A stretch of 64,000 bases of DNA. It comes from Ramlibacter sp. WS9 (lineage in GTDB: Bacteria > Pseudomonadota > Gammaproteobacteria > Burkholderiales > Burkholderiaceae_C). The stretch spans positions 1-64,000 of the forward strand of contig NZ_RKMB01000029.1 of NCBI RefSeq assembly GCF_003797765.1. The letters run 5' to 3'. This document shows, piece by piece, positions 11,988 through 28,047 of the stretch; the first letter of the stretch is position 1; every line of letters begins with the position of its first letter. The translations under genes and the position numbers were made by a program. The notes under the pieces were generated by a model that searched no databases, had not been told where the DNA came from, and saw only the letters and a program-made list of their open reading frames with translations.

Positions 11988-14900
11988 TCAATTGGTCGGC
12001 GCGATGAGGCTCCAGTTCTGGTTGTTGCCTCCGTTGCACGGCCAGGTGATCAGGGCGGTGTCCAGCGCGGTTGCGGAGCCTGGCACGTCCAGGCAGGCGC
12101 CGGACGCGCGGTTGCGCAGCGTGGCCCCCGTTTGCGTCCATTGCGTCGTCGTGCCCGCCGTACAGGCCGTCTGGACGACCGGGCCGCCGCTGGTGGCGGT
12201 GTTGCTCTGGGCGACGCACAAGCCGCTGTGCTTGGCGACGAACTGGACGTAACCGCCGGAGGAGTTCACCGTGAACTGCTCATTGGTGGCACTGCCGCAA
12301 GTCCATTGGATGACGACCGCGCCGGCGGCAGGCGATGCGCCGCGGATGTTGACGCACAGGTTGTTCAGCGCGGAGCGGACCCGCACCAACGGGGGTGGCG
12401 TGGCGCCGGGGTTGTCGAGCGAACGCACGTACTCGGCCAGTGCGGTCTGGTCGGCTGACGACAGCGAGGCCGCGTTGCCGTGCGCGGACGTGAACACGTT
12501 CTGGACCTGCGCGGCCTGCCCGTTGTGGAAGAACGACGGGTTGCTCCATGTGCCGAACAGCGTGGGCGTGTCGAAGCCGACACCGGCCAGCGGCTGGTTG
12601 TTGCCCTTGCCGGACGATGCCTGGATCGTGCCCACGTCGTGCCGCAGGCCGTCCTGCATATTGGCGCCGGTGTGGCAGGTCGCGCACTGTGCCGACGCGA
12701 AGAGCTGCTGTCCGCGCACGGCGTTGACGGTGAGGCTGCCGTCCGCGTTGCGGGCCGGGCTGCGCATGTAGCGGTTGAGCGAACCGAGGTAGGCCGCGAG
12801 GTCGTCGAGCTCCGCGCTCTTGCCCGCCTTGGCCGCCCCCAGGGGATCGGACGTCGCGGCGAAGTCCGCGTTGCTCATGAACCCGGTTCCGCCGAACGCG
12901 CCGCGGATGTCGTTCTCGAAGTCCTGCACCTCGTTGAAGTTGGCGCTCCAGTGCAGGCTGCCGTGCCCCGTTCCCTGGCGGCCCAGCAGGCTGATGGTGC
13001 GGCGCAGGCCCTCGCCTCGCTGGGTGAAGTCCCACACCATGCCGTCGTCGCTGCCGTCGGCGTGGCAGCTCGCGCACGACATGTAGTTGTCACGGCTCAT
13101 GCGGCGGTCGGCGGCGTTGTAGAACATCTGCTTGCCACGCAAGGCGGCGGCGCTGAGCGTCTCCAGCGCCACGGTCGGCACGGTTTGCAGCAACGTGGCC
13201 GCGGCGGTCTGGCTTGTCAGCACGCCGGCGACGTCGTGCACCGTCACGTTGCGGTCCAGGAAGTTGTTGACGAACAGGCGCTTGCGCGCTGCGTCCAGGT
13301 AGAGGCCGTGCGGCGCCTTGCCCACATCGGTGATTTCGCCACGGATCGCACGGCTGTACGAGTCGACGATGGCAACGCGATTGCCTTCCATCTGGGCGAC
13401 GAACATGTAGTCGCCGCTGGGCGCGTACAGCACGGCGCGGGCCGGCGCGCGGTCGTCGAAGTCCAGCTGGTCGGCGAACACCTCGGACGCCTGCTGCAGA
13501 TCGACCTGCGACAGGATGGAGCGCACCGTGCGGTCATGCTCCAGCGGCTGCCCGTCGCGGTTCAGCCCGCGCAGGATGTTGTCCTTTTTCGACGGCAGCG
13601 CCGCGCGCTTTCCGCTGGGCGCGATCACCACCTGGCTCAGGTAGTTGGGCACGCCGCGGGCGCGGCTTTCGTCGTCCACCGTGGTGGTGTCGACGCGCAG
13701 CGGTATCGTCGAGGCCAGCGAGAGCGACGTCAGGCTCACTTTGTGCAACTGCCCGCCTTGGGCTGTCGACTTGAAGCGCGTGACGTAGGCCGCCTGCGAA
13801 TCCGCGCTGACGGCCACGCCGCGCACGGCACCGGCCAGCGGCACGGTGCCGGTGCGTGCGCCCGTGGCCGGGTCGAACGTGACGAGCGACGACTTGCTCT
13901 CCAGCGTCAGCAGGCCTTTCGACCGGTCGGGCGTGAACACCACGCCGTAGGGCCCGCTGCCGTAGTCGAGCGTCACGGTGGCGGAGAGGCTGCCGTCGAC
14001 GGCGTTGAGCGCAACCAGCTTGTCGTCGTCCTGCACCGTCACCCAGATGCGCCCGTCGGGGCCCACGGCTAACGTGCGTGGCTCGTTGCCCACGCGCACT
14101 TCCCAGCGTTTGGCGAGTGTCTGCGCGTCGATGGATGAGACCGTGCCGCTGTCGGGGTTGACGCTGTAGACGGCGTTGGCGTCGCCGGCGATGTTGGTGG
14201 TGTGCGTGGGCGCAGATGCCGTGACGGGCTCGATGACCGTCACCAGGGAGTTGTAGTACGTTTCCAGGCCGCTCGTGCTGCGAACGGTGAGCGTGATGTT
14301 GTAGTGGCCGGCCTTGGTGTACGAGTAGCTGGCGCTCGGCGAAGACGAGAATGCGGTGCGCGTGCCGTCGCCGAAATTCCAGCTGTACGTCGCGGTCCCG
14401 CTCAAGACCGTGGGGCTGAAGTTCAGCTGGCCGTTCACCAGCTTCGGGTCAGTCCCCAGGCCCGGGTCGCCAACGACGGGCAGCGCGCGCAGCTGCGTCA
14501 CGTCGGTGTCGCCGAGCACGCGGTTGTACACGCGCACGTCGGCCAGCGTGCCGCGGAAGAAGTCGGCATTGCCCTGGATCTGGCCGAGGAGCTGGAAGCG
14601 ATTGCCCAGGCCCAGCGCTCCGGTGCGGCCTACCGCGGACGACTTCACTCCGTTCACGTACATGGTCTGCGCGCCGGAGGCGGCGTCGCGCGTCAGCACG
14701 ATGTGCTGCCAGGCGCCGTTGTTCACGGCCGCCGCCGACTTGAGGCCCGGGTTGTTTGCCGCGACGTCGCCCACGGACAGGTTGATGCGGCCGGTGTTGT
14801 CGATCCAGCCCCAGAACACGTCGTCCGCGCCGCCGCTCTGGTCGCGCCCGAAGATGCCGGGCGCCGTCCACGGCACGCTGGTGCCGACCTGGGTGGTCTT

Positions 14901-16682
14901 CATGTAGAAGCTGAGCGAGGCCGAGCCGCCAAGGGCCGAGGCGACGTTGTCGTCCTTGAGCGCGACACCACCGGTGCGCTGGCTGAAGTTCAGGCCGATG
15001 TTCTCGAAGGCATCCGTGGCCGTGGCCGTGCCGTTGTTCTGGCCGATCTGGTCGGCCAGCGTGCGGCCCAGCGTCCAGTAGTGCGCCAGGTTGATGTCGG
15101 TCGCGTTGCCGGTGATGAAGGTTGCCTTGTATTCCGTGCCGACGGCGTTGCCGGCATAGTCTTTCATGCCGTTGACGGGCAGCACGACCTCGTAGGTGGT
15201 GCTGGGCTGCAGCGGCTGGGCCGGGAAGAAGTTGACGATGCCCAGCTGCACGCTGTACGTACCCGCCAGCGCGTTGCCGCCGACCGGGCGCACGATGAAC
15301 GTGCTGGTGTTGACGGTCTCGGGCAGGATGCTGTCGGTCATGCCCAAGCCGATGCGCGAAGTCAGCGCCTGCTGGCGCGCGCCATTGGCCGGCGACATCG
15401 CCTTGACGACGGGCCGGGTAGTGTCCGGCAGGGTCGAGTGAACCATGAAGGCGCTGCCCGAGCCGTGGTCATTGCCGACGAACAGCAGGTTGCCGAACGG
15501 TGCGACTTGACCGTGGTCGGAATGGGATTCGTCTTCCGAACCGGGCGGGAACATGCCGCCGCGGCCCACCTCGACGTGCTGCATCGGGTTGCTGACGTCG
15601 ATCTTGTGGACCTTGTGCTGTGCGCCCTGGAACACGTAGTCGTCCTGGGTTGCGCAATACAGCTGCTCGTCGACGACGGCCCGGTTGTCACCGGCCACGA
15701 ACCGGCTGCGATCGGCCAGGTTGTAGCTGAACATGCGCGCGCCAAAGCCGCGTACGGAGCCGTACAGATTCAGCCCATCGAAACAGGTGGCGTAATAGAA
15801 GGGCGCTGCGCCGACCGTGTCGAGCACCTTGGGGTTCAGCGGATCGGAAATGTCCAGGCTGGCGATGCCGTCCGTGTTTTCCATCGAGGTCAGCACCAGG
15901 TGATTTCCCATCGTGAAGATGGGGCCGATCCGGAACCCGCCCAGCTCGCCGGTGGGCACCGGGTTGGGCTTGCCGGCGCCGCGATTGGCGAGCACCGCAT
16001 TCGCCGGGTCGCGCGCGTCGATGATGTACATGCCGTCGTTCGCCGAGGCGACATACAGGTAGGGCGCCTGCCACCAGAGCTGCCAGCTCACATTGGCGTA
16101 GTCGCCGGCATTGACCGTGGGCAACGCGAGCTTCTTGACCTGGATCACGTTGTTGATGTCGGTGAAGTCCCAGAACTCGACGCCCTTGGTGGTCGCGATC
16201 GAGACATAGACCTTGCCGCCGATGGTGGAGGTGCCGAAGGAATGCGCTTCGCGGAACTCCGAGGTCCGCCCCTCGGGTTCGTAGATGCGCTTGACCAGCT
16301 GGATCGCCCGTGGGTTGGAGACGTCATACAGCAGGAATCCCCCCGGGCCCGCGCCGCTGTCGGGCGCGAACATCGTGAGGAAGTAGCCGTTGATCATGAT
16401 GCCCGCGTTCAACCCGAAGGCCTTCCGGCCCGGGTAGGTTTCGGGGGTGCCCTCTTCGTCGCGGCGGATCCAGGAGACAGGCTGGAAGAGTTCGGCCTGG
16501 GTGTACGACAGGTTGCCCAGGCCTGGGCCCTGCAAGGGGAACGGCCCGACGGCCAGGGCCGAGACGGCCGTGCTCATCTGGCTCAGCGAGGTGAGCGGAC
16601 TTTGGCCATTGACCGCGGCGTGGCCCAGCAGCGCGGCGAACAAGAGCCCCAGCACCGAGAACAGTCTTCTGAGTATCATCAT
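11988..16682 (-). CDS. Secreted multidomain protein: LVIVD propeller, Ig-like, LamG, PKD, YVTN propeller, di-haem cytochrome c, ricin lectin
   Basis: This product has 1564 residues. In order they show: a signal peptide (1-22); LVIVD-type propeller repeats (about 90-420, for example FLLYDVSNPRAIQLVKRI); a bacterial Ig-like domain (about 424-526); a LamG/concanavalin-like jelly roll (about 529-733); a PKD domain (about 745-817, YSWNFGDGT); a YVTN/YncE-type propeller (about 830-1155); a cytochrome c region with two covalent haem motifs, CASCH (Cys1203-His1207) and CATCH (Cys1333-His1337); and a ricin-type beta-trefoil (about 1432-1561) with QW repeats. Haem attachment requires export to the periplasm or beyond. 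The layout suggests a carbohydrate-targeted redox protein, but no reaction can be assigned. AGGAG precedes the tandem ATG codons. Confidence 0.9.
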   Translation of the reverse strand: MMILRRLFSVLGLLFAALLGHAAVNGQSPLTSLSQMSTAVSALAVGPFPLQGPGLGNLSYTQAELFQPVSWIRRDEEGTPETYPGRKAFGLNAGIMINGYFLTMFAPDSGAGPGGFLLYDVSNPRAIQLVKRIYEPEGRTSEFREAHSFGTSTIGGKVYVSIATTKGVEFWDFTDINNVIQVKKLALPTVNAGDYANVSWQLWWQAPYLYVASANDGMYIIDARDPANAVLANRGAGKPNPVPTGELGGFRIGPIFTMGNHLVLTSMENTDGIASLDISDPLNPKVLDTVGAAPFYYATCFDGLNLYGSVRGFGARMFSYNLADRSRFVAGDNRAVVDEQLYCATQDDYVFQGAQHKVHKIDVSNPMQHVEVGRGGMFPPGSEDESHSDHGQVAPFGNLLFVGNDHGSGSAFMVHSTLPDTTRPVVKAMSPANGARQQALTSRIGLGMTDSILPETVNTSTFIVRPVGGNALAGTYSVQLGIVNFFPAQPLQPSTTYEVVLPVNGMKDYAGNAVGTEYKATFITGNATDINLAHYWTLGRTLADQIGQNNGTATATDAFENIGLNFSQRTGGVALKDDNVASALGGSASLSFYMKTTQVGTSVPWTAPGIFGRDQSGGADDVFWGWIDNTGRINLSVGDVAANNPGLKSAAAVNNGAWQHIVLTRDAASGAQTMYVNGVKSSAVGRTGALGLGNRFQLLGQIQGNADFFRGTLADVRVYNRVLGDTDVTQLRALPVVGDPGLGTDPKLVNGQLNFSPTVLSGTATYSWNFGDGTRTAFSSSPSASYSYTKAGHYNITLTVRSTSGLETYYNSLVTVIEPVTASAPTHTTNIAGDANAVYSVNPDSGTVSSIDAQTLAKRWEVRVGNEPRTLAVGPDGRIWVTVQDDDKLVALNAVDGSLSATVTLDYGSGPYGVVFTPDRSKGLLTLESKSSLVTFDPATGARTGTVPLAGAVRGVAVSADSQAAYVTRFKSTAQGGQLHKVSLTSLSLASTIPLRVDTTTVDDESRARGVPNYLSQVVIAPSGKRAALPSKKDNILRGLNRDGQPLEHDRTVRSILSQVDLQQASEVFADQLDFDDRAPARAVLYAPSGDYMFVAQMEGNRVAIVDSYSRAIRGEITDVGKAPHGLYLDAARKRLFVNNFLDRNVTVHDVAGVLTSQTAAATLLQTVPTVALETLSAAALRGKQMFYNAADRRMSRDNYMSCASCHADGSDDGMVWDFTQRGEGLRRTISLLGRQGTGHGSLHWSANFNEVQDFENDIRGAFGGTGFMSNADFAATSDPLGAAKAGKSAELDDLAAYLGSLNRYMRSPARNADGSLTVNAVRGQQLFASAQCATCHTGANMQDGLRHDVGTIQASSGKGNNQPLAGVGFDTPTLFGTWSNPSFFHNGQAAQVQNVFTSAHGNAASLSSADQTALAEYVRSLDNPGATPPPLVRVRSALNNLCVNIRGASPAAGAVVIQWTCGSATNEQFTVNSSGGYVQFVAKHSGLCVAQSNTATSGGPVVQTACTAGTTTQWTQTGATLRNRASGACLDVPGSATALDTALITWPCNGGNNQNWSLIAPTN

Positions 16683-16775: not shown

Positions 16776-17648
16776 TTACGCGGGTTGTGACTCGTACAGC
16801 TGCCAGGCTTTCTCGGCACTGGCGTTCTCGTGGATCATGGCCATCAGCGCGCGCACCACGGCTTGCGGATTGCGGTGCTGGTAGACGTTGCGGCCGTAGA
16901 CCAGGCCCACCGCGCCTTGATCGAGCAGCTGGCGCGAGCGCACCAGCACCTGCTGCAGGTCCTCCTTGCCGCCGCCGCGCACGAGCACGGGGCAACGTGC
17001 GGCCTGCACCACGCGGTGGAACTCCTTGGGGTCGCTCGTCGGGTCCGCCTTGATGATGTCGGCGCCCATCTCGCGCGCGAGGCGCACCAGCGTGACGATC
17101 TTGTCGGCGTCGCCGTCCACCATGTAGCCGCCGCGCTCCGTCTGCGGCGCCATCACCAGCGGCTCGATCATCAGCGGCATGCCGTACCGGTCGCAGTCGG
17201 CGCGCACGCGCGCGATGTTCTGCACGCACTGGCGGAACAGGTCGGGTTCGTCGGGCAGCATGAACAGGTTCACCACCGCGCAGGCCGCGTCCATCTGGAC
17301 TGCCGGCAGCACCGGGTCTTGCTCGTTCTGCAGCACGGCCCACATGCTGCGGTGGCGCGTTGCGTTGTAGGGGTTGCCCATGTCCAGCCGCATCACGAGC
17401 TGCGGGCGGTCGCGCCCGTGCTTCTGCACCAGGTCGGCCTGGCCGTAGGCGAGCTGGATGGCGTCGGGACGCGCCGCCACCAGCTTGCCGATCACGGCTT
17501 CCATGTCTTCCAGGCCCGCCAGGAAGCTGGGCTCGTTGCACACGCCATGGTCCACCGCGATATCGAGGCATCGTCCCGCGTTCAACAGACGGTTCAGCCT
17601 GGCTTCTTTTTTCTGCATCATCTTTCCTTCTAGACAAATCTTGGGCAT
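16776..17648 (-). CDS. Class I (DeoC/LacD/LsrF-type) aldolase
   Basis: This TIM-barrel aldolase of about 290 residues is related to DhnA-type fructose-bisphosphate aldolases and LsrF. Recognisable parts are the early LDIAVDHGV strand, the Schiff-base strand with lysine in ADIIKADPTSD, and the phosphate-binding ends PVLVRGGGKED and GAVGLVYGRNVYQH. The presence of a phosphate site suggests a phosphorylated ketose substrate. ATG 17648 follows GGAGAGG. A second ATG pair at 17621/17618 has its own AAGGA, and many relatives start near there, so the start is uncertain. It follows the aldo/keto reductase by 85 bases and probably belongs to the same catabolic operon. Confidence 0.85.
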   Translation of the reverse strand: MPKICLEGKMMQKKEARLNRLLNAGRCLDIAVDHGVCNEPSFLAGLEDMEAVIGKLVAARPDAIQLAYGQADLVQKHGRDRPQLVMRLDMGNPYNATRHRSMWAVLQNEQDPVLPAVQMDAACAVVNLFMLPDEPDLFRQCVQNIARVRADCDRYGMPLMIEPLVMAPQTERGGYMVDGDADKIVTLVRLAREMGADIIKADPTSDPKEFHRVVQAARCPVLVRGGGKEDLQQVLVRSRQLLDQGAVGLVYGRNVYQHRNPQAVVRALMAMIHENASAEKAWQLYESQPA

Positions 17649-17733
17649 GAGCCTCTCCAACCGAGGGCCCTGCCGCTCTCAGCAAATGCGCGATTCACAG
17701 ATCGCGCGGACGGTGTAGGGACGAATGTGCGCG

Positions 17734-18714
17734 CTAGAACGACGCGCCCAGGTGGCGCGCTGCCGCGCCTTCGATCGCCGCGAGTTCCTCGCGACCCAGT
17801 TCGACCTTGCCGGCACCGGCGTTCTGCACGGCCTGCCGCGATGTGCGGGCGCCGCACAGCGCGACCGACACGGTGCCGTGCCGCAGGGTCCAGGCAATCA
17901 TCATCTGCGCGAACGAGCAGTCCAGGCGATGGCGCAGCGGCTCGAGTTCGGCGAAGAAATGCGCGAGCTTGGTCCGGTTGGCCGGCGAGAAGCGCGGCTC
18001 GTCGGCGCGCTGGTCATCGCCGGTGAAGCGGCGGTCGGCGTCCATGGGCCCGGCCAGCAGGCCCATGGCCAGCGACGAGTAGCCCATGATGCCGACGTGG
18101 TAGTCCGCGCAGATGGGGCGCAGCGTCGTTTCGATCTCGCGGTCGATCAGGCTGTAGCGCTCCTGGATCGCGTCGACCGGGCCGCACTTCACGTATTCCA
18201 GCAGCGTCTCGGGGCTGACGTTGCTGACGCCGATGGCGCGGATCTTTCCCTGCGCCTTCAGGTCCAGCAGCGCGCCCATCGTCTCGGCCACCGGCGTCTG
18301 GGCATCCTGCCAGTGCGTGATGTAGAGATCGATGTAGTCGGTCTGCAACCGCGCGAGGCTTTGCTCGACTTCGTGGAAGATCGATTCGCGGCCCAGGTGG
18401 CGGTACACCGGCGTGCCGTCCTCGTCGAAGAAGTGCGTGCCCTGGCGCGTGTGCCACACCAGCCCGCACTTGGTGGCGACGATGGCTTCGTGGCGGCGGC
18501 CTTTCAGTGCCGTGCCCACCAGGCGCTCCGCGTGGCCGAGGCCGTAGGCGGGCGCGGTGTCGATCATCTGGACACCGGCGTCCAGCGAGGCACGGATCGC
18601 ATCGACGGCGGCGGCATCATCGTTGCCGCCCCACATCCATCCGCCCATCGCCCAGGTGCCGAGGCCCACGTCCTCGCACTCGATCCCGGATTTTCCGAGC
18701 TTGGTCTTGCTCAT
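17734..18714 (-). CDS. Aldo/keto reductase
   Basis: This 326-residue NAD(P)H-dependent (beta/alpha)8 oxidoreductase carries the catalytic tetrad: Asp and Tyr in MIDTAPAYGLG, Lys in IVATKCGL, and His in LYITHWQD. It reduces aldehydes or ketones, or oxidises the matching alcohols. The ATG at 18714 overlaps the stop of the upstream permease by four bases (ATGA), so it is translationally coupled to the sugar ABC transporter and almost certainly acts on the transported compound or its breakdown products. The frame is open further upstream, but that part lies over the permease coding sequence. Confidence 0.9.
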   Translation of the reverse strand: MSKTKLGKSGIECEDVGLGTWAMGGWMWGGNDDAAAVDAIRASLDAGVQMIDTAPAYGLGHAERLVGTALKGRRHEAIVATKCGLVWHTRQGTHFFDEDGTPVYRHLGRESIFHEVEQSLARLQTDYIDLYITHWQDAQTPVAETMGALLDLKAQGKIRAIGVSNVSPETLLEYVKCGPVDAIQERYSLIDREIETTLRPICADYHVGIMGYSSLAMGLLAGPMDADRRFTGDDQRADEPRFSPANRTKLAHFFAELEPLRHRLDCSFAQMMIAWTLRHGTVSVALCGARTSRQAVQNAGAGKVELGREELAAIEGAAARHLGASF

Positions 18715-19748
18715 CTCTTGGCTTTCGTGTTGTTCATCAGGTGGTCGATCGTCACGGCCGCCAGCAGGATCAGCCCCTTGATGACGTCCTGCCAGTACGG
18801 GGAGACGTCCAGCAGGATCAGCGAGCTGGTGACGACCGACAGCAGGGCCAAGCCGAGCACCGCGCCCAGCACGGTGCCGGAGCCGCCCTTCAGGCTGGCG
18901 CCGCCGATCACCGCCGCGGCGATCACGTTGAGTTCCATGCCGACGCCGAAGGTGGGCGTGGCGGCGCCGAAGCGCGCGGTGTACACGACGCCGGCCACGC
19001 CCGCGAGCGCGGAGCACAGCACCGTCACCCAGAACTTCACGCGGCCGGTGCGGATGCCGGCATACAGCGCGGCCTTCTCATTGCTGCCGGTGTAGAACAC
19101 CTTGCGGAAGATCGTGGCGTGGCGCAGCGCGAGGTCGCTGATGAGGACGATCACCGCGAAAATCAGGATCACCGTGGGAATGCCGAACACCGAGCCCTGG
19201 CCGATGAACTTGAATTCAGGCGGCAAGGCGAACAGCGATTGCGGCGTTCCCTGCGTGGCGGCCAGGCACAGGCCGCGCACGATCACCATGAAGGCGAGCG
19301 AGGCGATGAAGTGGTTCAGGCCGATGCGCGTGACGCAGCCACCAATCATCGCGCCGATGGCGGCGCTCGCGGCGATGGCCACGAGGCTCGCGGTCCAGGG
19401 GTCCAGCCCCATGAGGAACAGCTTGCCGGTCACCACCATCGCGAGGCATACGACGGAGCCGACCGCGAGGTCGATGCCGCCGACGATCAGCAGGATCGTC
19501 ATGCCGACCACGACGATGCCCTCGATGGAGAACGAGAGCAGCATCGCGCGGATGTTGTCCCAGGTGAGGAAGTACGGCGAAGCAAAGCTCATCCCGGCAC
19601 ACATCACCGCGATGATCAGCAGGAGGCCCGCCTCCCGCATGTTCGTCAGCTTCATTTTCGGCATTCCCTGGCCGCCGCGTTGCGGATCCGACGGCGCCAT
19701 ACCGGCGGGCAGCACGCCTGTAGCCGTGGGGGACTCTAGTTTAGACAT
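18711..19748 (-). CDS. Sugar ABC transporter permease (RbsC type)
   Basis: This 345-residue inner-membrane permease of the ribose/xylose/AI-2 class has about ten hydrophobic helices and the family motifs VVVGMTILLIVGGIDLAVGS and AAAVIGGASLKGGSGTVLGAV. It forms the channel for a monosaccharide or polyol delivered by the periplasmic protein at 21277-22320. ATG 19748 overlaps the stop of the ATPase gene by one base (TGATG), and its own stop overlaps the reductase start by four. A hydrophilic tail of about 45 residues precedes the first helix. Confidence 0.93.
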   Translation of the reverse strand: MSKLESPTATGVLPAGMAPSDPQRGGQGMPKMKLTNMREAGLLLIIAVMCAGMSFASPYFLTWDNIRAMLLSFSIEGIVVVGMTILLIVGGIDLAVGSVVCLAMVVTGKLFLMGLDPWTASLVAIAASAAIGAMIGGCVTRIGLNHFIASLAFMVIVRGLCLAATQGTPQSLFALPPEFKFIGQGSVFGIPTVILIFAVIVLISDLALRHATIFRKVFYTGSNEKAALYAGIRTGRVKFWVTVLCSALAGVAGVVYTARFGAATPTFGVGMELNVIAAAVIGGASLKGGSGTVLGAVLGLALLSVVTSSLILLDVSPYWQDVIKGLILLAAVTIDHLMNNTKAKR

Positions 19749-21280
19749 CAATGCGCCTCCTGTGCGCTGAAACCCGAGGCCAGCCGCAGCAGGCTTTCCT
19801 CGGTCATATCTTCGGCGGCGAGTTCGCCGGCGATTCGGCCTTCGTGGATCACCAGTGCGCGGTCGCACAGGCCGATGATCTCGGGCAGCTCGGAAGAAAT
19901 CACGATCACGCCCACGCCCTGGTCCGCGAGTTCGCGCAGGATGTGGTGGATCTCGGACTTGGCGCCCACGTCCACGCCGCGCGTGGGTTCATCCATCCAC
20001 AGCACCGCGGGTTTCGTCGCGAGCAGCTTGGCGATGGCCACCTTCTGCTGGTTGCCGCCGGACAGGCTGGACGCCTCGGCGGAAACGCCGTTGCATTTGA
20101 GCTTCAGGCTCGTCCCCAGGTCGGTGGCGAGCTTTCGCTGCGCCGCGCCCTGCACCCAGCCCCAGCGCGAACTCACGCGCTGCAAGGCCATTGAGCAGAT
20201 GTTCTGCGCGACCGACATATCGAGAAAGAGCCCCGCCGCCTTGCGGTCTTCGCTCAGGTAACCGATGCCGTGCCGCAGCGCGTCCGCGTACTTGCGGATG
20301 GTGAGCGGCTTGCCCTTCAGGTGCACCGTGCCGCGCCGCGTGCGGCGCAACCCGCAGACTGACTCCGCCAGCTCGCTGCGGCCCGCGCCCATCAGCCCTG
20401 CGATGCCGAGGATTTCCCCGCGCCTGACCTTGAACGAGATGCCATGCACGCGCTCGCCGTCGGCGATGTCGTCGACTTCCATCAGGCAGTCCGACTCGTC
20501 GTTGGCCGCGTGCGCGCCCAGTTTCGGCGGGTAGTACTGGCCCAGGTCACGGCCGACCATGCTGCGCACCAAGTCGTCGGGCGTGATGCTCTCGATGGCG
20601 CCGCAGAACACATCGCGGCCGTCGCGCAGCACGGTGGCGCGGTCGCAGTGCTCGAATATTTCCGCCATGCGATGGCTGATGTAGACGATGCCGATGCCCT
20701 GCTCCTTCAGCTCGTGCAGCACCTGGAACAGCGCGACGGATTCCACCTCGGTGAGCGCGGCGGTCGGCTCGTCCAGGATCAGCACCTTGCATTCCAGCGA
20801 GAGCGCTTTTGCGATCTCCACCAGCTGCTGCTGCGAGAGACTGAGTTCGTCCACGCGGCGCTTCGGGTCGATGTCCTGGCCCAGGCGCTTCAAGAGCGCG
20901 CGAGCGCGCTCGTTCAGGGCCGCGTAGTCCATCCAGCCGCGGCGGCTGGCGTTGATCTCCGGCATGAAGACGTTCTCGGCGACCGTCGCGTCGCCGCACA
21001 GCGCGATCTCCTGGTGCACCAGGCCCACGCCCAGCCGCATGGCGTGGGCCGGCCCGTCGATCCTGACGATCTCGCCGTCGAGGATGACGGTGCCCTCGTC
21101 CGGCTCGTGGATGCCCGCGATGATTTTCATCAGCGTGGACTTCCCGGCGCCGTTCTCGCCGCACAAGGCATGGATTTCGCCCTTGCGCAACGAGAAGTGG
21201 ACACCGGCGAGCGCACGCGACGCGCCGAAGCTCTTCTGGATGCCGCGCAGTTCAAGCACCGGCGCGTCCGCGTTCGTCAT
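19748..21280 (-). CDS. Sugar ABC transporter ATP-binding protein (RbsA type, two nucleotide-binding domains)
   Basis: This 510-residue protein has duplicated ABC ATPase domains. The first domain is complete: Walker A GENGAGKST, signature LSLSQQQ and Walker B LILDEPTAAL. The second has a degenerate Walker A (GLMGAGRSEL), a good signature LSGGNQQK and Walker B LWMDEPTRGVDVG. This asymmetry is normal for the RbsA/MglA family. It powers uptake with the permease encoded next. ATG 21280 overlaps the stop of the binding-protein gene by four bases. Confidence 0.95.
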   Translation of the reverse strand: MTNADAPVLELRGIQKSFGASRALAGVHFSLRKGEIHALCGENGAGKSTLMKIIAGIHEPDEGTVILDGEIVRIDGPAHAMRLGVGLVHQEIALCGDATVAENVFMPEINASRRGWMDYAALNERARALLKRLGQDIDPKRRVDELSLSQQQLVEIAKALSLECKVLILDEPTAALTEVESVALFQVLHELKEQGIGIVYISHRMAEIFEHCDRATVLRDGRDVFCGAIESITPDDLVRSMVGRDLGQYYPPKLGAHAANDESDCLMEVDDIADGERVHGISFKVRRGEILGIAGLMGAGRSELAESVCGLRRTRRGTVHLKGKPLTIRKYADALRHGIGYLSEDRKAAGLFLDMSVAQNICSMALQRVSSRWGWVQGAAQRKLATDLGTSLKLKCNGVSAEASSLSGGNQQKVAIAKLLATKPAVLWMDEPTRGVDVGAKSEIHHILRELADQGVGVIVISSELPEIIGLCDRALVIHEGRIAGELAAEDMTEESLLRLASGFSAQEAH

Positions 21281-22320
21281 TCGTTGATGCCTTTGGTGCC
21301 ACGGCGAGCGAGGTACTTGTCCCAGTAGAAGTCGTCGGCGTTCGCCTTGCTGACGACCGACAGCCCGTTGTCCAGGAACGGCACGGCCATGGGGTTGGCC
21401 TTGTTGCGCTTGGCGTCGTTCATCGGGTCGATGAGGTTCGCGTTCTTCGCCAGGAACAGCATCATCATGCCCATGTAGCCCTGCACGCCCTGGTTCGGGT
21501 TGATGGAGCCGAACACTTCGCCCGACTTGATCATGTCGAGGATCTTGGCGTTGACGTCGCAGCACATCACGCGGATGTTCTTCTTGGTCTCGACCTTGGC
21601 CTGCGCCGCGCCCAGCGCCGAGTTGGCTTCGGGCATGAAGATGGCGCCGAGGTTGGGGTTGGCCTGCGCCAGGCTCAGCGTCGCCTGGTAAGCCTTGTTC
21701 GGGTCCTGGTTGCTGGCGGCGCGGCCGACCAGCTTCATGCCCGGGTGCTTGGCCTTCATCTGCCCGACGAAGGCGGCGATGCGGCGATCGTGGTTGTCCT
21801 GGCCCGGGTTCTCCAGCACGGCGTAGTCGCCCTTGCCGCCCAGCGAAGCGGCGATCGCGTCGGCGGCCTGCGAACCTTCACGGTCGTTGTCGGAGGTGAC
21901 GAACGAGACGCGCTTGGAGTTCGGCGAGTCCGCGGCGAACGTGACCACGGGGATGCCCATGGCGGCCGCACGATTGATCGGCTCGATGAACGGGTCGGGG
22001 TTCATCGGGTGCAGCAGGATGCCGGCGGGCTTGCGCGCCAGCTCCTGTTCGAACGACGCCAGCTGCTTGTTGACGTCGTATTCGGGCGTGCCCGTGTAGC
22101 GCGTCTTCACGCCCAGCGTGCGGCCCAGCTGCTTCATCATTTCGTAGACCGGGAACCAGTACTCGACACCCGAGACCATCACGTTCATCACGTAGACGTC
22201 GCTCGGGTTGCCGCGCAGACCCGTGGAAGCGGGTTGGGCAGCAGCTTGCGCCAACGCGGCTGCGGAACCGGCCAGGCCGGCTCCGGCCAGGGCCGCGGTT
22301 TTCAGGAAATCTCGCCTCAT
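21277..22320 (-). CDS. Sugar/polyol ABC transporter substrate-binding protein (RbsB-like)
   Basis: This 347-residue periplasmic binding protein has the ribose/galactose-binding fold. The leader MRRDFLKTAALAGAGLAG carries a twin-arginine motif (RRDFLK), so export by Tat is likely. The hinge and ligand regions resemble RbsB-like proteins (PAGILLHPMNPDPFIEPINRA, VSFVTSDNDREGSQAADAI). It is the first gene of the leftward transporter operon, 132 bp from the divergent kinase gene, with an operator-like palindrome between them. The ligand is not known. The linked kinase and dehydrogenase favour a polyol or ketose. Confidence 0.92.
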   Translation of the reverse strand: MRRDFLKTAALAGAGLAGSAAALAQAAAQPASTGLRGNPSDVYVMNVMVSGVEYWFPVYEMMKQLGRTLGVKTRYTGTPEYDVNKQLASFEQELARKPAGILLHPMNPDPFIEPINRAAAMGIPVVTFAADSPNSKRVSFVTSDNDREGSQAADAIAASLGGKGDYAVLENPGQDNHDRRIAAFVGQMKAKHPGMKLVGRAASNQDPNKAYQATLSLAQANPNLGAIFMPEANSALGAAQAKVETKKNIRVMCCDVNAKILDMIKSGEVFGSINPNQGVQGYMGMMMLFLAKNANLIDPMNDAKRNKANPMAVPFLDNGLSVVSKANADDFYWDKYLARRGTKGINE

Positions 22321-22452: not shown

Positions 22453-23970
22453 ATGAATTCCAAGTTTTTGGGCCACGATGTCATAACAATGAAAAACGAC
22501 ATCTTCATCGGGATCGACATGGGCTCGACCGGTTTGAAGGCAGTCGCGTTCGACGGGGAGACGGGCCTGGGGCTCGCCACCGCTGGTAGCGCACTGCCTT
22601 TCATCCGCTTGCCTGAAGGGGGCTGCGAGCTCGAAGCCGCGGCCATCGAATCAACACTCATGCAGGCTTTGCAGAGCATCGCGTCGCAGTTGGGCCCTCG
22701 CGCCGCGCAGGTGCGGGCCCTCAGCTGCACCGGCCACGGTGCGGGCCTCTATGCACTGGACAAGCAGGGGCAGCTGCTCCGCGGCCGCGCCGTTGCGTCG
22801 ACCGACCAGCGCGCGTCGGCGCGGGCACGGGCTCTTGCGCTGCGCCAGGGCGCCGAGCTGTTCGAGGAGGTCGGCTTCCAGCCCTGGGCCGGCCAGCCCC
22901 TGCTGATCGCCGCGCAGTTGTACGGCGGCGACGCGGTTCACACCGGCGCGATCCATCGCCTGCTGTTCGCCAAGGACTATCTGGGCCTGCTGCTCACAGG
23001 CGAGATGGCCACGGATGCCAGCGATGCCAGCACCGGCGGCCTGTTGTCGGAGCAGACGGGAACCTGGTCGCGGCTCGCCAGTTGCGCGGCCGACCTGTCC
23101 GATCTCGGCCCCGCGACGCTCGCGCCCATCTTGCCGAGCGGCTCGATCATCGGCACGCTGTTGCCGGCGCGCGCCGCGCAGTGCGGCCTGCCGGCTGGCC
23201 TGCCTGTGGCGATCAGCGCGATCGACCTGCTCGCGTCGCTGGCTGCCGTGGGCGCGCCGCAGCGCGGCCAGGCGGTCGCGGTGCTGGGCACCTGGTGCGT
23301 CAACGCGGTCGTCGACGACCAACGTGAGGCCAAGCCCGCCATCGGCGGGATCGTGAATTTCGGCGCCCCCGGCCGGCGCCTGTACCTGGAGAACAGCCCT
23401 TCGTCGATGGCGAACGTATCCTGGCTCGCCAGGACGGTGGGCTTCGACAGCGCGGCGCAGGCCGTCGATTGCGCGATGACCGTGCCGCTCGGCGCGCATG
23501 GCCTTCGCTTCATGCCGTTCATCAACGGTGGCGGCGGGCCCGAAGGCGCTTCCGCAGGGTTCATCGGCCTCACCTCGCATCATGACCGCTCGCACATGGC
23601 CCGCGCCGTGGTCGATGCAGTGGCGGCGCTGCACGCGAGGCACCTGGCCCGGCTTGCGTCGTTCGGCCTGGGCGTGCGCGGCCGGGTGGCGGCACTGGGC
23701 GGCGGCGCGCGCGACGCGCGGCTGGTGCGGCTCATCGCATCCTTCCTCGGCCACCCGCTCGAGCGCTGCGGCGACGACGAGACCGGCGCGCGCGGCGCCG
23801 CGCTCTACGCCGCCCAATCGCAGGGCGCCGGCCTGCCCCAGCCTTCCATCGAAGTGGTGGAACACGACACGCAAGAGGCTACCGCCCACGCGGACTATTA
23901 CGACAGCTTCCACGAACTGGTGGACACCCTCGCACCCGCGTTCGCGCAACTGGCGGAGGCACGGCAATGA
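22453..23970 (+). CDS. FGGY-family carbohydrate/polyol kinase
   Basis: This 505-residue kinase has the actin-like ATPase fold of the FGGY family (xylulose, glycerol, erythritol, AI-2 kinases). The phosphate-1 motif IFIGIDMGSTGLKAV is at residues 17-31, and the adenosine region VAALGGGARDARLV is in the C-terminal half. It phosphorylates a sugar or polyol after uptake. ATG 22453 has AGGAG eleven bases upstream. A later ATG at 22489 gives a more typical family N-terminus but lacks a ribosome site. Its stop overlaps the next start (ATGA). It pairs with a GlpD-like dehydrogenase, as EryA does with EryB in erythritol loci, but specificity cannot be assigned. Confidence 0.9.
   Translation: MNSKFLGHDVITMKNDIFIGIDMGSTGLKAVAFDGETGLGLATAGSALPFIRLPEGGCELEAAAIESTLMQALQSIASQLGPRAAQVRALSCTGHGAGLYALDKQGQLLRGRAVASTDQRASARARALALRQGAELFEEVGFQPWAGQPLLIAAQLYGGDAVHTGAIHRLLFAKDYLGLLLTGEMATDASDASTGGLLSEQTGTWSRLASCAADLSDLGPATLAPILPSGSIIGTLLPARAAQCGLPAGLPVAISAIDLLASLAAVGAPQRGQAVAVLGTWCVNAVVDDQREAKPAIGGIVNFGAPGRRLYLENSPSSMANVSWLARTVGFDSAAQAVDCAMTVPLGAHGLRFMPFINGGGGPEGASAGFIGLTSHHDRSHMARAVVDAVAALHARHLARLASFGLGVRGRVAALGGGARDARLVRLIASFLGHPLERCGDDETGARGAALYAAQSQGAGLPQPSIEVVEHDTQEATAHADYYDSFHELVDTLAPAFAQLAEARQ
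22476..22491. promoter_or_regulatory. Second operator-like site (O2) inside the kinase 5' end
   Basis: CGATGTCATAACAATG matches the upstream perfect palindrome at 13 of 16 positions. The two centres are 90 bp apart. It lies within the first codons of the kinase if translation begins at 22453, and covers the alternative ATG at 22489. A second site at this distance would suit a roadblock or looping mechanism by the GntR regulator (inference). Confidence 0.45.
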
Positions 23971-25742
23971 GCGAGCAGCGTTCCGCATTCACGCGCTGCG
24001 TCTCGCTGGCGGGCGCGCATTTCTCCACGGTGATCGTGGGTGCCGGCATCAATGGCGCGGGTGTGTTCCGCGACCTGTCGCTGCAGGGCGTGCATTGCCT
24101 CATCGTCGACAAGGGCGACTTCGCGGCCGGTGCGAGCAGTGCGCCGTCGCGCATGATCCACGGCGGCCTGCGCTACCTCGAGAACGGTGATTTTTCGCTG
24201 GTGGCCGAGGCCACGCGCGAACGCAACCTGCTGCTGCGCAATGCGCCGCACCTGGTGCGGCCGCTCAAGACGGTGGTGCCGCTGTCGAGCCACTTCGGCG
24301 GGCTGTTCGGCAGCATCTTGCGCTTTGTCGGCTTCACCCCGTCGCCGCGCACGCGCGGACTGTTCGCCGTGGCCCTGGGGCTGCGGCTGTATGACCTGCT
24401 CGGGCGCCGCCAACGCCGCATGCCCGGCCACCAGATCTCGCGCGTGCCCTCGGCCGACGGTGCGCTGTTTCGTGCGTCGGTGCGCTGGACGGCCACCTAC
24501 TTCGACGCGTGGATCAGCCACCCCGAGTGGTTGATCATGGAACTGCTGGCCGACGCGCACCGCGACGAGCCACGGTCCGCCGCCGCCAACTACTGCCGCG
24601 TGGTGCGCTGCGAAGGCAACGCCGTCACGCTGCGCGACGAGATCACCGGCGAAGAGGTGCAAGTCACGGCGGACACGGTGGTCAACGCCACCGGCGCGTG
24701 GCTGGACCGCTCGGCCGCGGCGCTGAACGGCGCGGGCGCGCGCATCATGGGCACGAAGGGCTCGCACTTGGTCCTGGACCATCCGGCGCTGTGGGACTCG
24801 CTGGACGGCCGCATGGCCTACTTCGAGGCCTCCGATGGGCGTGTCTGCATCGTCTACCCCTTCCTCGACCGCATCCTGGTCGGTTCCACCGACATCCCCG
24901 TCGACGACCCGGACCAGGTCGCCACCGAGCCGGCCGAGATCGACTACCTGCTGGACGTGTTGCGCGAACTGTTCCCGCAACTGCGCTTCGCCCTCGCCGA
25001 CGTGGTCTACACCTACGTCGGCGTGCGCCCGCTGGCACGCTCGGACGCCGACCGGCCGGGACAGATCTCGCGCGACCATGCCGTCGCCATCGACCCGCCC
25101 AATGCGACGCGCAGCGTGCCCATGATCTGCCTGGTGGGCGGCAAGTGGACCACCTTCCGCGCGCTGGCGACGGAGGCGGCGGACGAAGTGCTGCGCCTGT
25201 TGGGCGTGCCGCGCACGCAATCGACCGAGCTGCTGCCCATCGGCGGCGGGGCGGACTGGCCGGCGGACACCACGTCGATGGCCGGCTTCCTCGCACGCAT
25301 CGAGGCGGCGACGGGCCTGGACGCGCAACGCGTCGCGGATCTCGTCAGCCGCTACGGCTCCCGCGCGCAAACACTGGCGGAAACGTTCGCGGCCGACGGC
25401 GACGTGCGGTTGCGGCACGCGCCCGCCTACTCCGTCGGCGAGATTCGCTACCTCTGCCTGCACACCGGCGTCACGCACCTCGTGGACCTCGTGATCCGCC
25501 GCACGCTGCTGGCCATTCGTGGCCATGTGACGGAGGCTCTGCTGTCGGAGCTGACGGAGATCGCCGCGTCAGCGCTGCACTGGGACAGCCCACGGCGGCT
25601 CGAAGAGTTCCAGGCCTGCTTTGAAACACTGCGCGACCGGCATCACGTGCGATTCGAGCCTGTACGGCAACCGCTGCCGGAGGTTTCTGTTTTCGATGCA
25701 TCATTGCGCTCCGACCCGATCACTACCCCGCTTGCCACGTGA
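23967..25742 (+). CDS. GlpD-like FAD-dependent polyol-phosphate dehydrogenase
   Basis: This 591-residue flavoprotein is homologous to aerobic glycerol-3-phosphate dehydrogenase and to erythritol-phosphate dehydrogenase EryB. The FAD fold motif is TVIVGAGINGAGVFRDL near residue 20, followed by the family segment PSRMIHGGLRYLE and the C-terminal extension characteristic of GlpD. It is expected to oxidise a phosphorylated polyol to a ketose phosphate at the membrane and reduce quinone. ATG 23967 overlaps the kinase stop, and its own stop overlaps the GntR start. This context points to oxidation of the kinase product rather than general glycerol metabolism. Confidence 0.9.
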   Translation: MSEQRSAFTRCVSLAGAHFSTVIVGAGINGAGVFRDLSLQGVHCLIVDKGDFAAGASSAPSRMIHGGLRYLENGDFSLVAEATRERNLLLRNAPHLVRPLKTVVPLSSHFGGLFGSILRFVGFTPSPRTRGLFAVALGLRLYDLLGRRQRRMPGHQISRVPSADGALFRASVRWTATYFDAWISHPEWLIMELLADAHRDEPRSAAANYCRVVRCEGNAVTLRDEITGEEVQVTADTVVNATGAWLDRSAAALNGAGARIMGTKGSHLVLDHPALWDSLDGRMAYFEASDGRVCIVYPFLDRILVGSTDIPVDDPDQVATEPAEIDYLLDVLRELFPQLRFALADVVYTYVGVRPLARSDADRPGQISRDHAVAIDPPNATRSVPMICLVGGKWTTFRALATEAADEVLRLLGVPRTQSTELLPIGGGADWPADTTSMAGFLARIEAATGLDAQRVADLVSRYGSRAQTLAETFAADGDVRLRHAPAYSVGEIRYLCLHTGVTHLVDLVIRRTLLAIRGHVTEALLSELTEIAASALHWDSPRRLEEFQACFETLRDRHHVRFEPVRQPLPEVSVFDASLRSDPITTPLAT

Positions 25743-26494
25743 ACAGTTCGACCTTTCCGACTCCCGCCCTCGACCGAAATTCCGGCTCCCCCCTGTGGGC
25801 GCAGTTCCGCGACGCATTGCGAGCGCAGATCCTCGGCGGCGAGTTCCCCGCAGGCACCAAGCTGCCCACCGAAGCACAGCTCGGCGAGCAGTACGGCATT
25901 TCAAGAATCGTTGTCAGGGAGGCATTGGCCGACCTGGTGCGCAACGGCCTCATCTACAAGATCCGAGGCCAGGGCGCTTTCATCCAGGCGCGAGAGCGGG
26001 ACGAAGACTTCGTCTCCACTGTGCTGGGCTTTTCCGACGAGATGCAGCGCAAGGGCCGCACCGTGCGCACCCAGGTGTTGCAGCAGGAATTGCGCGAAGC
26101 CAACGAGCGTGAGGCGCGCTCGCTGGACCTGAAGCCCGGCGACCAGGTCGTCGCGCTCAGGCGCCTGCGCAGCGTCGACGATGAGCTTCAGTTGCTGGTG
26201 GAGACGGCCGTGCCCGCCGACCTGGCGCCCGGGCTGCACCGCACGCGGCTGGAGAACCGCTCGCTGTACGACGTGCTGCGCCGGCAATACGGCCTGCGCA
26301 TCGTGCGCGCCGAACGCTGGATCGACGCCGTCATGCCGGATCAACCGACCAGCAACCTGCTGGGCATCACCGGCGTCGAGCCCCTGATGCGCATCGAGTC
26401 CATCGCGTACAGCAGCAACGGCCGGCCGCTGGAGCACTACACCGCGCTCCACCGCTGCCAGTCGAGCCGTCTGCACGTGCAGACGACGACGTAG
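25739..26494 (+). CDS. GntR-family (HutC/UTRA) transcriptional regulator
   Basis: This 251-residue protein has an N-terminal GntR winged helix (about 18-80; LPTEAQLGEQYGISRIVVRE is the recognition region) and a C-terminal UTRA effector domain (about 95-240) of the kind that binds sugars or sugar phosphates. It starts at GTG 25739, overlapping the dehydrogenase stop (GTGA), so it is the last gene of the kinase operon and probably controls it. The palindromes at 22386-22401 and 22476-22491 are its likely targets. It is convergent with the pirin gene. Confidence 0.93.
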   Translation: MNSSTFPTPALDRNSGSPLWAQFRDALRAQILGGEFPAGTKLPTEAQLGEQYGISRIVVREALADLVRNGLIYKIRGQGAFIQARERDEDFVSTVLGFSDEMQRKGRTVRTQVLQQELREANEREARSLDLKPGDQVVALRRLRSVDDELQLLVETAVPADLAPGLHRTRLENRSLYDVLRRQYGLRIVRAERWIDAVMPDQPTSNLLGITGVEPLMRIESIAYSSNGRPLEHYTALHRCQSSRLHVQTTT

Positions 26495-27546: not shown

Positions 27547-28047
27547 ATGCCCTTACTGAAGGAACTCGGCGCTGCGGTCCGCCAGCGAAGGCGAGAGATG
27601 GGACTGAGCCAGCAGCAGTTGGCTCACCTCGTCGAGTTGTCGCGAGCCACCATCAACGAGCTTGAAATGGGCAAACTCAAAGACTTAAGCGCGCGCCGGA
27701 TCGAGCGCCTCGCAAACGAGCTAGGCTTCGCCGTGGGACTCGTCGGCACACTGCGCCCCAAGGGCAGGGGCGCGCTGAAAGTGGCGGCTGGGATTGCCAG
27801 CGTGCCGTACAAGGCCGAGATGCCAGCCAGCGCGCTGTTCGACTCCCTCAAAGCCGGGGTTGTCGCGCCCGCGTACATCCCGCATCTGCGAACCCTGTTG
27901 GACGAGGCACCGGTGGCCATCCTTGCAGAGATCGCCGACGAGCTCGAGTCGCACGGCTTGCCAAAATTGGCGACATGGAAGCGGATGGGTATGCTCGCTG
28001 GCGTACTGAGATGCGATAGGCCCTTGTGGCAAAGCCTCGCGAAATGA
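27547..28047 (+). CDS. XRE-family helix-turn-helix regulator
   Basis: This 166-residue protein has an N-terminal XRE helix-turn-helix (about 5-60; GLSQQQLAHLVELSRATINE is the DNA-reading part) resembling HipB or antitoxin-type regulators. Its C-terminal region of about 100 residues is unassigned. I chose ATG 27547 because the helix-turn-helix begins just after it and the operator-like repeat ends 30 bases upstream. The frame is open further up to 27442. Its TGA overlaps the ATG of the following serine hydrolase gene by four bases. No toxin gene is adjacent, so it is either a solitary regulator or an orphan antitoxin. Confidence 0.82.
   Translation: MPLLKELGAAVRQRRREMGLSQQQLAHLVELSRATINELEMGKLKDLSARRIERLANELGFAVGLVGTLRPKGRGALKVAAGIASVPYKAEMPASALFDSLKAGVVAPAYIPHLRTLLDEAPVAILAEIADELESHGLPKLATWKRMGMLAGVLRCDRPLWQSLAK

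What the first reader, a model, noticed from the sequence alone, without database searches (positions are those of the whole stretch)
11988..16682. 1564-residue secreted fusion of two beta-propellers, LamG, PKD, di-haem cytochrome c and ricin lectin
Seen directly: a signal peptide, LVIVD repeats, an Ig-like domain, a LamG jelly roll, PKD (YSWNFGDGT), YVTN repeats, two CxxCH motifs (Cys1203 and Cys1333 regions) and a C-terminal QW-repeat trefoil, all in one frame. LamG and ricin folds bind carbohydrates, and PKD usually mediates surface assembly. Combining these with a c-type di-haem module suggests a redox enzyme aimed at a polysaccharide or cell surface, or an extracellular electron-transfer protein. 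I do not know a characterised protein with this order. It sits next to a sugar/polyol uptake locus.
Basis: partly seen in the sequence, partly recalled or inferred. Interest (0 to 1): 0.65.

Follow-up and report, generated by a model that had tools for sequence, protein, structure and literature searches.

The report
Sugar-linked secreted two-propeller di-haem enzyme
A bacterium encodes a very large, probably secreted protein that joins two propeller-shaped domains, a two-haem redox unit and sugar-binding domains, and the gene sits in an operon for importing and breaking down a sugar-like compound, which suggests a new kind of built-in oxidising enzyme that feeds that pathway.

Summary
In detail: one 1564-codon frame, minus strand, 11988-16682, with LVIVD propeller, Big_5 Ig, LamG, PKD, YVTN propeller, di-haem module and ricin trefoil. 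The order is not unique: 38 of the 80 retrieved loci have all seven parts; LamG and ricin are optional. The haem part is a CCP/MauG-fold unit laid out, with propeller 2, like hydrazine synthase beta-gamma. By alignment its haem-I pocket lacks the peroxidase Glu and haem II looks bis-His. The gene closes a CUT2-sugar-ABC / aldo-keto reductase / aldolase operon; 45 of 80 loci keep at least two of seven pathway genes nearby, 10 of them outside Burkholderiales with changed order. Unexpected: in 21 of 22 more distant loci examined the same propeller-di-haem module is fused to a galactose-oxidase-like copper radical oxidase with its copper-site residues intact; pocket positions 1258 and 1268 differ between the two types. 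I read the module as a redox partner for an extracellular propeller oxidase whose product is imported. Export, haem loading, activity and substrate are inferred.

The parts
11988..16682 (-). Whole gene: 1564-aa probably secreted two-propeller di-haem protein
16605..16682 (-). Signal-peptide-like N-terminus (about residues 1-26)
   Evidence: hydropathy only; no predictor run
15438..16532 (-). Propeller 1 (LVIVD type, about residues 51-415) with conserved M96, H147, W200, F250, Y297, Y342, D389, D405, H406
   Evidence: LVIVD hit; AF2; matches to WD40-type propellers; conservation
15111..15425 (-). Big_5 Ig-like domain (420-524)
   Evidence: 79 of 80 loci
14499..14975 (-). LamG domain (570-728), optional in the family
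   Evidence: 51 of 80 loci
14256..14429 (-). PKD domain (752-809)
   Evidence: 79 of 80 loci
13203..14207 (-). Propeller 2 (YVTN type, about 826-1160)
   Evidence: VIA-align Z 35.1 to hydrazine synthase beta and Z 35.8 to 1l0q
12399..13190 (-). Di-haem CCP/MauG-fold module (1165-1428): haem I C1203/C1206/H1207 with H1244-W1245, E1251, E1256, F1268; haem II C1333/C1336/H1337 with H1386 and H1401
12003..12395 (-). Ricin-type trefoil (1430-1560), optional in the family
   Evidence: 39 of 80 loci
16776..17660 (-). DeoC/LacD (DhnA-like) aldolase, 93 bases upstream of the gene
17734..18714 (-). Aldo/keto reductase
18711..19868 (-). Sugar ABC permease (BPD_transp_2, CUT2 type)
19748..21271 (-). Sugar ABC ATPase (RbsA-like); start chosen from the profile match
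21277..22320 (-). Sugar-binding protein (Peripla_BP_4)
22453..23970 (+). FGGY carbohydrate kinase, divergent
23967..25742 (+). GlpD-like FAD-dependent dehydrogenase
25739..26494 (+). GntR/UTRA regulator

Best explanation
It is a secreted, two-part oxidoreductase. The front unit (LVIVD propeller plus Ig-like domain) binds and probably acts on an extracellular carbohydrate-like substrate in a conserved pocket; the back unit (PKD hinge, YVTN propeller, di-haem module) takes or gives electrons, or activates the front unit, through haem I, Trp1245 and a bis-His haem II. LamG and ricin domains hold the enzyme on a glycan. The product is taken up by the co-operonic CUT2-type ABC transporter and broken down by the kinase, GlpD-like dehydrogenase, aldo-keto reductase and aldolase. 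Shown by computation: domain make-up, fold class, conserved haem pocket, operon linkage and co-occurrence in one branch, and swap of the front unit for a copper radical oxidase in a sister group. Inferred: export, haem loading, enzyme activity, electron direction, substrate, and that the enzyme feeds the pathway.
For: Linkage: 45 of 80 homologous loci have at least two of seven pathway genes (aldolase, reductase, permease, ATPase, binding protein, kinase, GlpD) within the fetched flanks; 42 have at least two of the first five. 35 are Burkholderiales (30-odd of them the closely related Variovorax and Acidovorax, so not independent); 10 are Inquilinus, Endozoicomonas, Photobacterium, Hahella and Vibrio with different order or orientation. 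Genes on the other side of the window gene at similar distance are not kept: LivK-like in 1, porin 0, the 9186-10391 gene 0 of 80. Co-occurrence in 299 family genomes: the 7 genomes (own included) with a core of at least 70% identity all have the sugar-binding protein; 2 of the other 292 do (Fisher p = 3e-11 without own). The 70% line was drawn after seeing the data; at 65% it is 7 of 9, p = 3e-11, and for any core at 1e-40 it is 7 of 30 against 2 of 269, p = 2e-6. Three of the seven are one genus. Two genomes have the complete 8-gene pathway without this gene, so it is an add-on to a working uptake route. Enzyme-like pocket: Y1200, H1207, H1244, W1245, E1251, D1254, E1256, R1260 in 101 of 101 sequences. 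Front unit: H147, W200, Y342, D389 in 37 of 37. Swap: 21 of 22 distant loci carry a copper radical oxidase in the front slot, with the Cys, Tyr, Tyr-His and His of the copper site in 21 of 21; positions 1258/1268 are D/F in one type and Q/L in the other.
Against: No activity, export or haem data. The transported compound is unknown: PDB matches of the binding protein span several sugars. 35 of 80 loci show fewer than two pathway genes; 12 of these have under 2.2 kb of sequence on one side, the others do not. Of 18 genomes chosen from loci without a neighbouring binding protein, 4 have it elsewhere and 14 lack it at 1e-40, so the enzyme can exist without this pathway, and two pathways exist without the enzyme. 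The front propeller's best solved matches are generic WD40 propellers within 1.2 Z units of each other. The residue switch at 1258/1268 could be plain ancestry: L005, which has no detected front unit, also has Q and L-type letters like the copper-oxidase group. Some invariance is built in by the search pattern.
Confidence: 0.4

Rival explanations
1. A RoxA-like di-haem oxygenase: haem I binds O2 and itself cleaves the extracellular substrate; the propellers only bind and scaffold.
For: By alignment the peroxidase distal Glu is replaced by F (79 of 80) or L (1 of 80; 21 of 21 in the copper-oxidase type); RoxA has hydrophobic F301/F317 around its O2 and no peroxidase activity (passages of PMC6797691); Trp kept at the inter-haem position; PF21419 RoxA-like_Cyt-c hits 20 of 30 full-length relatives, not the window protein at 1e-5.
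Against: The residue before the Trp, Phe301 in RoxA, is an invariant His1244 here (RoxA numbering from the papers; not aligned directly), and E1251, E1256 and D1258 follow it in sequence; the RoxA model gives 21.3 bits against a cut-off of 1000. A shared module behind a copper oxidase is harder to explain.
Confidence: 0.2
2. A peroxidase or electron shuttle: the module removes H2O2 or passes electrons to the cell surface or to other redox enzymes such as LPMOs.
For: CCP/MauG fold with two c-haem motifs (hhalign probability 99.9, E 1.3e-33); c-type cytochromes are reported as LPMO reductants (PMC8981238, PMC12542752: search listing with abstract starts only); copper radical oxidases of the sister group make H2O2 (legend passage of PMC9770985).
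Against: No AA10 LPMO match in the own genome; distal Glu and Pro not kept in the alignment; a pure shuttle needs no conserved acid/base cluster.
Confidence: 0.2
3. MauG/MbnH-like maturase: the di-haem unit oxidises Trp/Tyr residues of its own front propeller (or activates a radical site there) to build a protein-derived cofactor; the front propeller is then the real enzyme.
For: MauG and MbnH models hit 38 of 38 di-haem modules at 1e-3; conserved aromatics W200, Y297, Y342 in the front propeller; the sister front unit is a copper radical oxidase, a class that needs a peroxidase for full activity in vitro and has a dedicated partner peroxidase in some fungi (passages of PMC9770985).
Against: Scores far below the MauG and MbnH cut-offs (44.2 of 443.85; 36.0 of 362.85); a His stands where MauG has its Tyr ligand; no modified residue can be seen from sequence.
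Confidence: 0.15

Closest known systems
Hydrazine synthase beta-gamma (PDB 5c2v; fused in Scalindua) and its homologs outside anammox bacteria (PMC12758564: sections 7 and 8 read, other passages seen)
   Same: YVTN-type propeller followed by a CCP-like di-haem unit; best solved relative of the di-haem profile (3.6e-28); shared SCASCH...G..WD......NT stretch and HG motif aligned to the second haem-II His
   Different: 54.1 bits against a cut-off of 625; no extra Cys for a third haem bond; a Trp as in CCP/MauG, where HZS gamma has His144; front propeller, PKD and lectins added; no alpha-subunit match among the window neighbours that were annotated
Bacterial cytochrome c peroxidase / MauG / BthA superfamily (PF03150)
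   Same: two CxxCH, same fold over 261 aligned columns, Trp between haems
   Different: by alignment distal Glu is F/L, Pro not kept, Gln is Asp (Gln in the copper-oxidase type); second haem-II ligand His rather than Met or Tyr (ligands of CCP and MauG partly recalled)
RoxA rubber dioxygenase and Pseudomonas 10S-DOX
   Same: di-haem enzymes of the CCP fold; Trp302 inter-haem bridge in RoxA; F317 or its equivalent; third His ligand listed for 10S-DOX (passages)
   Different: His1244 before the Trp in place of F301; low model score; no propellers in RoxA (recalled)
Galactose/glyoxal oxidase (AA5 copper radical oxidase)
   Same: an AA5-like oxidase with its Ig-like E-set occupies the same slot in the sister proteins
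   Different: the window protein has no AA5 match and an LVIVD propeller instead

Membership tests
CCP/MauG superfamily (PF03150) | two c-type haem motifs in a CCP fold | tested here: met
CCP/MauG superfamily, peroxidase function | distal Gln, Pro and Glu at haem I (set conserved in bCCP, MauG, BthA per PMC6405878 passages) | tested here: not met
   hhalign puts D1258, T1266, F1268 there; F 34, L 4 of 38 at 1268 and D 35, Q 3 of 38 at 1258. One global alignment with a 3-residue gap nearby; no structure with haem
MauG | Tyr as second haem-II ligand (passages); NCBIfam TIGR03791 cut-off | tested here: not met
   a His 14-20 residues after the H1386 equivalent in 38 of 38; 44.2 bits of 443.85
Hydrazine synthase gamma / beta-gamma | NCBIfam NF052341/NF052342 cut-offs | tested here: not met
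   54.1 of 625 and 40.4 of 1250 bits
Hydrazine synthase gamma / beta-gamma | propeller joined to di-haem unit | tested here: met
Hydrazine synthase gamma / beta-gamma | third Cys near haem I (gamma Cys165 in PMC12758564) | tested here: not met
   the only Cys in 1165-1428 are the four of the CxxCH motifs
RoxA rubber dioxygenase | NF050033 cut-off | tested here: not met
   21.3 of 1000 bits
RoxA rubber dioxygenase | F301/F317 hydrophobic pocket | tested here: inconclusive
   F-like at 1268 but His at 1244, through CCPs; RoxA was not aligned directly
AA5 copper radical oxidase | GO E-set / glyoxal oxidase domain | tested here: not met
   no PF09118 or PF07250 hit in the window protein at E 1; AA5 queries match 0 of the 80 closest loci at 1e-6
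LVIVD-repeat propeller (PF08309) | Pfam gathering score | tested here: met
   21.5 bits, cut-off 20.2, a narrow pass; 14 of 30 relatives at 1e-5
Ricin-type lectin (PF00652) | Pfam gathering score | tested here: met
   71.5 bits, cut-off 29; one full QxW (QNW) and two degenerate repeats (EQF, TQW) in the sequence
Protein exported by a type II system | GspD present and protein found outside | tested here: inconclusive
   GspD 615 bits in own genome; location not testable

The most novel reading that the evidence does not exclude
The PKD-propeller-di-haem module is a general built-in activator or electron partner for extracellular propeller oxidases. In one branch it serves a copper radical oxidase, as separate peroxidases do in some fungi; in the window's branch it serves an LVIVD propeller that is itself a so far unknown oxidase with a His/Asp/Tyr/Trp site, and residues at the haem-I pocket are tuned to the partner.
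Probability: 0.25. Interest if true: 0.85.

Novelty: new variant of a known kind. Interest (0 to 1): 0.6.

Why it matters
If right, bacteria have solved by gene fusion a problem known from copper radical oxidases, which need a haem partner for full activity, and have reused the solution with a second, uncharacterised propeller. It would give an experimentally tractable family (Variovorax, Acidovorax, Caldimonas) for an oxidative route into an unidentified sugar pathway, and another relative for studying the origin of hydrazine synthase beta-gamma.

Tried and rejected
LPMO electron donor: no AA10 match in the own genome. Naming the imported compound: NCBIfam and PDB matches of binding protein, kinase and aldolase stay below naming level, and one literature search gave a single unrelated paper. 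Promoter and terminator scan: 0 promoter-like sites (1.0 expected) and 4 terminator-like sites, all on the plus strand (7.4 expected), no information. First neighbour clustering by longest ORFs was confounded by antisense ORFs at high G+C; replaced by tblastn with window proteins. C300/C343 as a copper-radical Cys: rejected, since both occur in 26 and both are absent in 11 of 37 sequences, which fits a disulfide. GntR and pirin hits (0) were dropped as controls because in the window they lie farther from the gene than the fetched flanks reach.

Literature searches for this architecture (open-access library only): searches gave no paper; (LVIVD with cytochrome c) two papers of other subjects; (galactose-oxidase-like, cytochrome c peroxidase, fusion, copper radical oxidase; at least 3 terms) six papers, seen as a listing only, none announcing such a fusion; eighteen papers including the fungal tandem pair; two searches gave the hydrazine synthase and BthA papers.

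Not selected that way: L002, L005, L124 and the 21 copper-oxidase loci, which came from whole-protein searches; the frame-picking script used HW patterns but lost none of the 22 loci. The 22 distant loci are L107 and L108 plus 20 stretches that cover 21 of the 32 rows under 50% identity; they lie in 19 genomes. In one search the 80 'LVIVD' sequences are 78 of L021-L100 (two too short), L124 and the window; nine of L021-L100 do not match propeller 1 at 1e-5 (L079, L082 and seven Aquimarina-type or L098), though 79 of 80 match the N-terminal half as a whole, some through Big_5. Totals printed are over 84 loci; L002-L005 had none, so they equal counts over 80. In one search, 10 of the 14 loci new were translated and 9 entered the profile (one too long).
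Full report
What is there. The gene is a single frame on the minus strand, 11988-16682, 1564 residues, with a hydrophobic N-terminus and no lipobox-like Cys. Pfam and NCBIfam find, in order, an LVIVD propeller, Big_5, LamG, PKD, a YVTN propeller, a CCP_MauG plus cytochrome c region and a ricin trefoil. CxxCH motifs start at 1203 and 1333. Two AlphaFold2 models cover residues 27-744 and 745-1564 with mean pLDDT 90.1 and 86.2.

How unusual the order is. All seven parts occur in 38 of the 80; propeller 1 is matched in 71, Big_5 in 79, PKD in 79, propeller 2 in 80, the di-haem module in 79, LamG in 51 and ricin in 39. So the constant core is propeller-Ig-PKD-propeller-di-haem and the lectin parts are trimmings. 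Carriers include Caldimonas, Methylibium, Variovorax, Acidovorax, Inquilinus, several Gammaproteobacteria, Aquimarina and Planctomycetota/[15 protein letters not shown] MAGs. It is patchy: 2 of 397 other genomes sampled from the phylum and 29 of 298 other genomes sampled from the family have a match at 1e-40.

The haem module. A profile of 38 modules finds hydrazine synthase gamma first (3.6e-28), then bacterial CCPs. A profile comparison with nine CCP-type proteins of relatives gives probability 99.9, E 1.3e-33, 261 columns. In that alignment Trp1245 takes the place of the inter-haem Trp, Asp1258 that of the distal Gln, Thr1266 that of the Pro and Phe1268 that of the distal Glu; there is a 3-residue gap just before, so single positions are provisional. 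The Gln/Pro/Glu set is described as conserved in bCCP, MauG and BthA (passages of PMC6405878). RoxA, which shows no peroxidase activity, has Phe301 and Phe317 around its haem-bound O2 (passages of PMC6797691). A second His 14-20 residues after the His1386 equivalent, His1401 in the window, is present in 38 of 38 sequences and aligns with the HG of hydrazine synthase gamma, whose haem gamma-II is bis-His (introduction passage of PMC12758564). Haem II is therefore most likely bis-His. Y1200, C1203, C1206, H1207, H1244, W1245, E1251, D1254, E1256, R1260, C1333, C1336, H1337 and H1386 are the same in 101 of 101 sequences. Part of this is selected: one of the two search patterns covers H1244, W1245, F1249 and E1251. 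The 21 copper-oxidase-type sequences, L002, L005 and L124 came from whole-protein searches and show the same letters. Propeller 2 matches hydrazine synthase beta with Z 35.1, rmsd 2.0, 302 aligned, tied with the S-layer propeller 1l0q at Z 35.8. The layout is that of hydrazine synthase beta-gamma, but curated cut-offs for that enzyme are missed by far and key features are absent, so it is a relative, not a member.

The front propeller. Its solved matches are generic WD40-type propellers at Z 25.6-26.8. About one residue per blade near the start of the inner strand is conserved: M96 36/37, H147 37/37, W200 37/37, F250 34/37, Y297 36/37, Y342 37/37, D389 37/37, and D405 and H406 36/37. C300 and C343 come and go together (26 both, 11 neither), a probable disulfide.

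The operon. On the same strand lie a CUT2-type binding protein, ATPase, permease, aldo-keto reductase and DeoC/LacD aldolase, then this gene after a gap of 93 bases; divergently, an FGGY kinase, a GlpD-like dehydrogenase and a GntR regulator. tblastn with these proteins in the 80 loci found aldolase in 40, reductase 40, permease 40, ATPase 41 (two of them, L030 and L050, are distant and stand alone), binding protein 38, kinase 5 and dehydrogenase 5. 45 of 80 have at least two of these seven (42 have at least two of the first five); 35 are Burkholderiales and 10 others, in which the genes lie downstream (Inquilinus), divergent (Endozoicomonas) or in another order or set (Vibrio, Photobacterium, Hahella). 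In most Burkholderiales loci kinase and dehydrogenase lie beyond the fetched flank; they are present where I looked farther (L103, and the kinase and part of the dehydrogenase in L104). Genes on the far side of the window gene are not kept: LivK-like 1, porin 0, the 9186-10391 gene 0 of 80. Of the 35 loci without linkage, 12 have under 2.2 kb on one side; the others are real absences from the flanks. The binding protein is 70-74% identical in Inquilinus, Endozoicomonas and Vibrio. In 299 family genomes it occurs in 9, including all 7 with a core of at least 70% identity; the two others carry the full eight-gene pathway without our gene. The 70% line was chosen after the fact; with all cores at 1e-40 it is 7 of 30 against 2 of 269. 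Among 18 genomes taken from loci without a neighbouring binding protein, 4 have it elsewhere and 14 not; among 5 taken from linked genera all 5 have it. So the link is real in one branch of the family and absent in others.

The swap. Two relatives from the first search looked odd by eye, and Pfam found a galactose-oxidase-like E-set in both. I fetched 20 further stretches with a core of 38-48% identity, covering 21 of the 32 rows under 50%; with those two (as L107, L108) 21 of 22 have an AA5-like front unit and one (L124) the LVIVD unit. In 21 of 21 the Cys, Tyr, Tyr-His and His that form the copper-radical site (assignment recalled from galactose oxidase) are invariant, and a lipobox-like Cys as well. 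The di-haem pocket differs between types at two places: 1258 is D in 78 and E in 2 of 80 against Q in 21 of 21; 1268 is F in 79 and L in 1 of 80 against L in 21 of 21. This may reflect tuning to the partner or simply ancestry: L005, with no front unit detected, is among the three Q at 1258 and four L at 1268. Copper radical oxidases are stated to need activation by horseradish peroxidase for maximum activity in vitro, and some fungi secrete a dedicated partner peroxidase (passages of PMC9770985). I saw no paper that describes a bacterial fusion of this kind; the searches were made, in an open-access library, mostly as listings. A reference in PMC11267884 (passages) names another bacterial AA5 fusion, with a CE3 domain.

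Mechanism proposed. The front propeller-Ig unit is the substrate-side unit; the PKD-propeller-di-haem unit is its redox partner or activator; LamG and ricin parts hold the glycan; the small product enters through the CUT2-type transporter. The first and third statements follow from fold families and conservation, the second from the swap, the fourth from linkage. None is shown by experiment. The direction of electrons, the oxidant (O2 or H2O2) and the substrate are open. I put 0.4 on this reading, with the RoxA-like, peroxidase/shuttle and maturase readings behind it.

Host. The contig holding L022 (Methylibium rhizosphaerae) and contig G551:C149 have the same length, 40,576 bases, and L050's contig (Aquabacterium humicola) and G620:C1 both have 2,296,681, so the window's genome very likely shares its family with these; this is an inference from lengths.

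Noticed in passing
L107, L108, L125-L143 (21 loci): Lipoprotein-like copper radical oxidases fused to the same YVTN-di-haem module, several with PA14 domains; copper-site residues invariant in 21 of 21.
   Followed up: partly
L140 (G588:C1:313000-330000): One 2568-aa frame with a duplicated propeller-di-haem-PA14 block and four CxxCH motifs.
   Followed up: no
L101 and L102: Complete eight-gene sugar pathway in the same order but without the di-haem gene.
   Followed up: yes
L077 and L089 (Vibrio penaeicida TUMSAT-NU1, two contigs): Two family members in one genome, one beside reductase-GlpD-aldolase-kinase, the other beside binding protein-ATPase-permease-reductase.
   Followed up: partly
window 10762-11937 and L048 4376-5491: LivK-like binding protein directly downstream in the window; a 74% identical copy sits between aldolase and the di-haem gene in L048.
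   Followed up: partly
G000 (own genome): The di-haem protein is the only CCP_MauG (PF03150) match reported in the genome at 1e-3.
   Followed up: no
L005: A 784-aa relative with propeller 2 and di-haem module but no front unit detected, its haem-I letters resembling the copper-oxidase type.
   Followed up: no
L082: Homologue frame starts late and the neighbouring aldolase matches in three pieces, possibly sequencing errors in that draft.
   Followed up: no
window 28026-29267 and 29366-30655: Two neighbouring proteins of the Beta-lactamase family PF00144.
   Followed up: no
window 36081-40598, minus strand: A 1505-aa open frame that was not examined.
   Followed up: no
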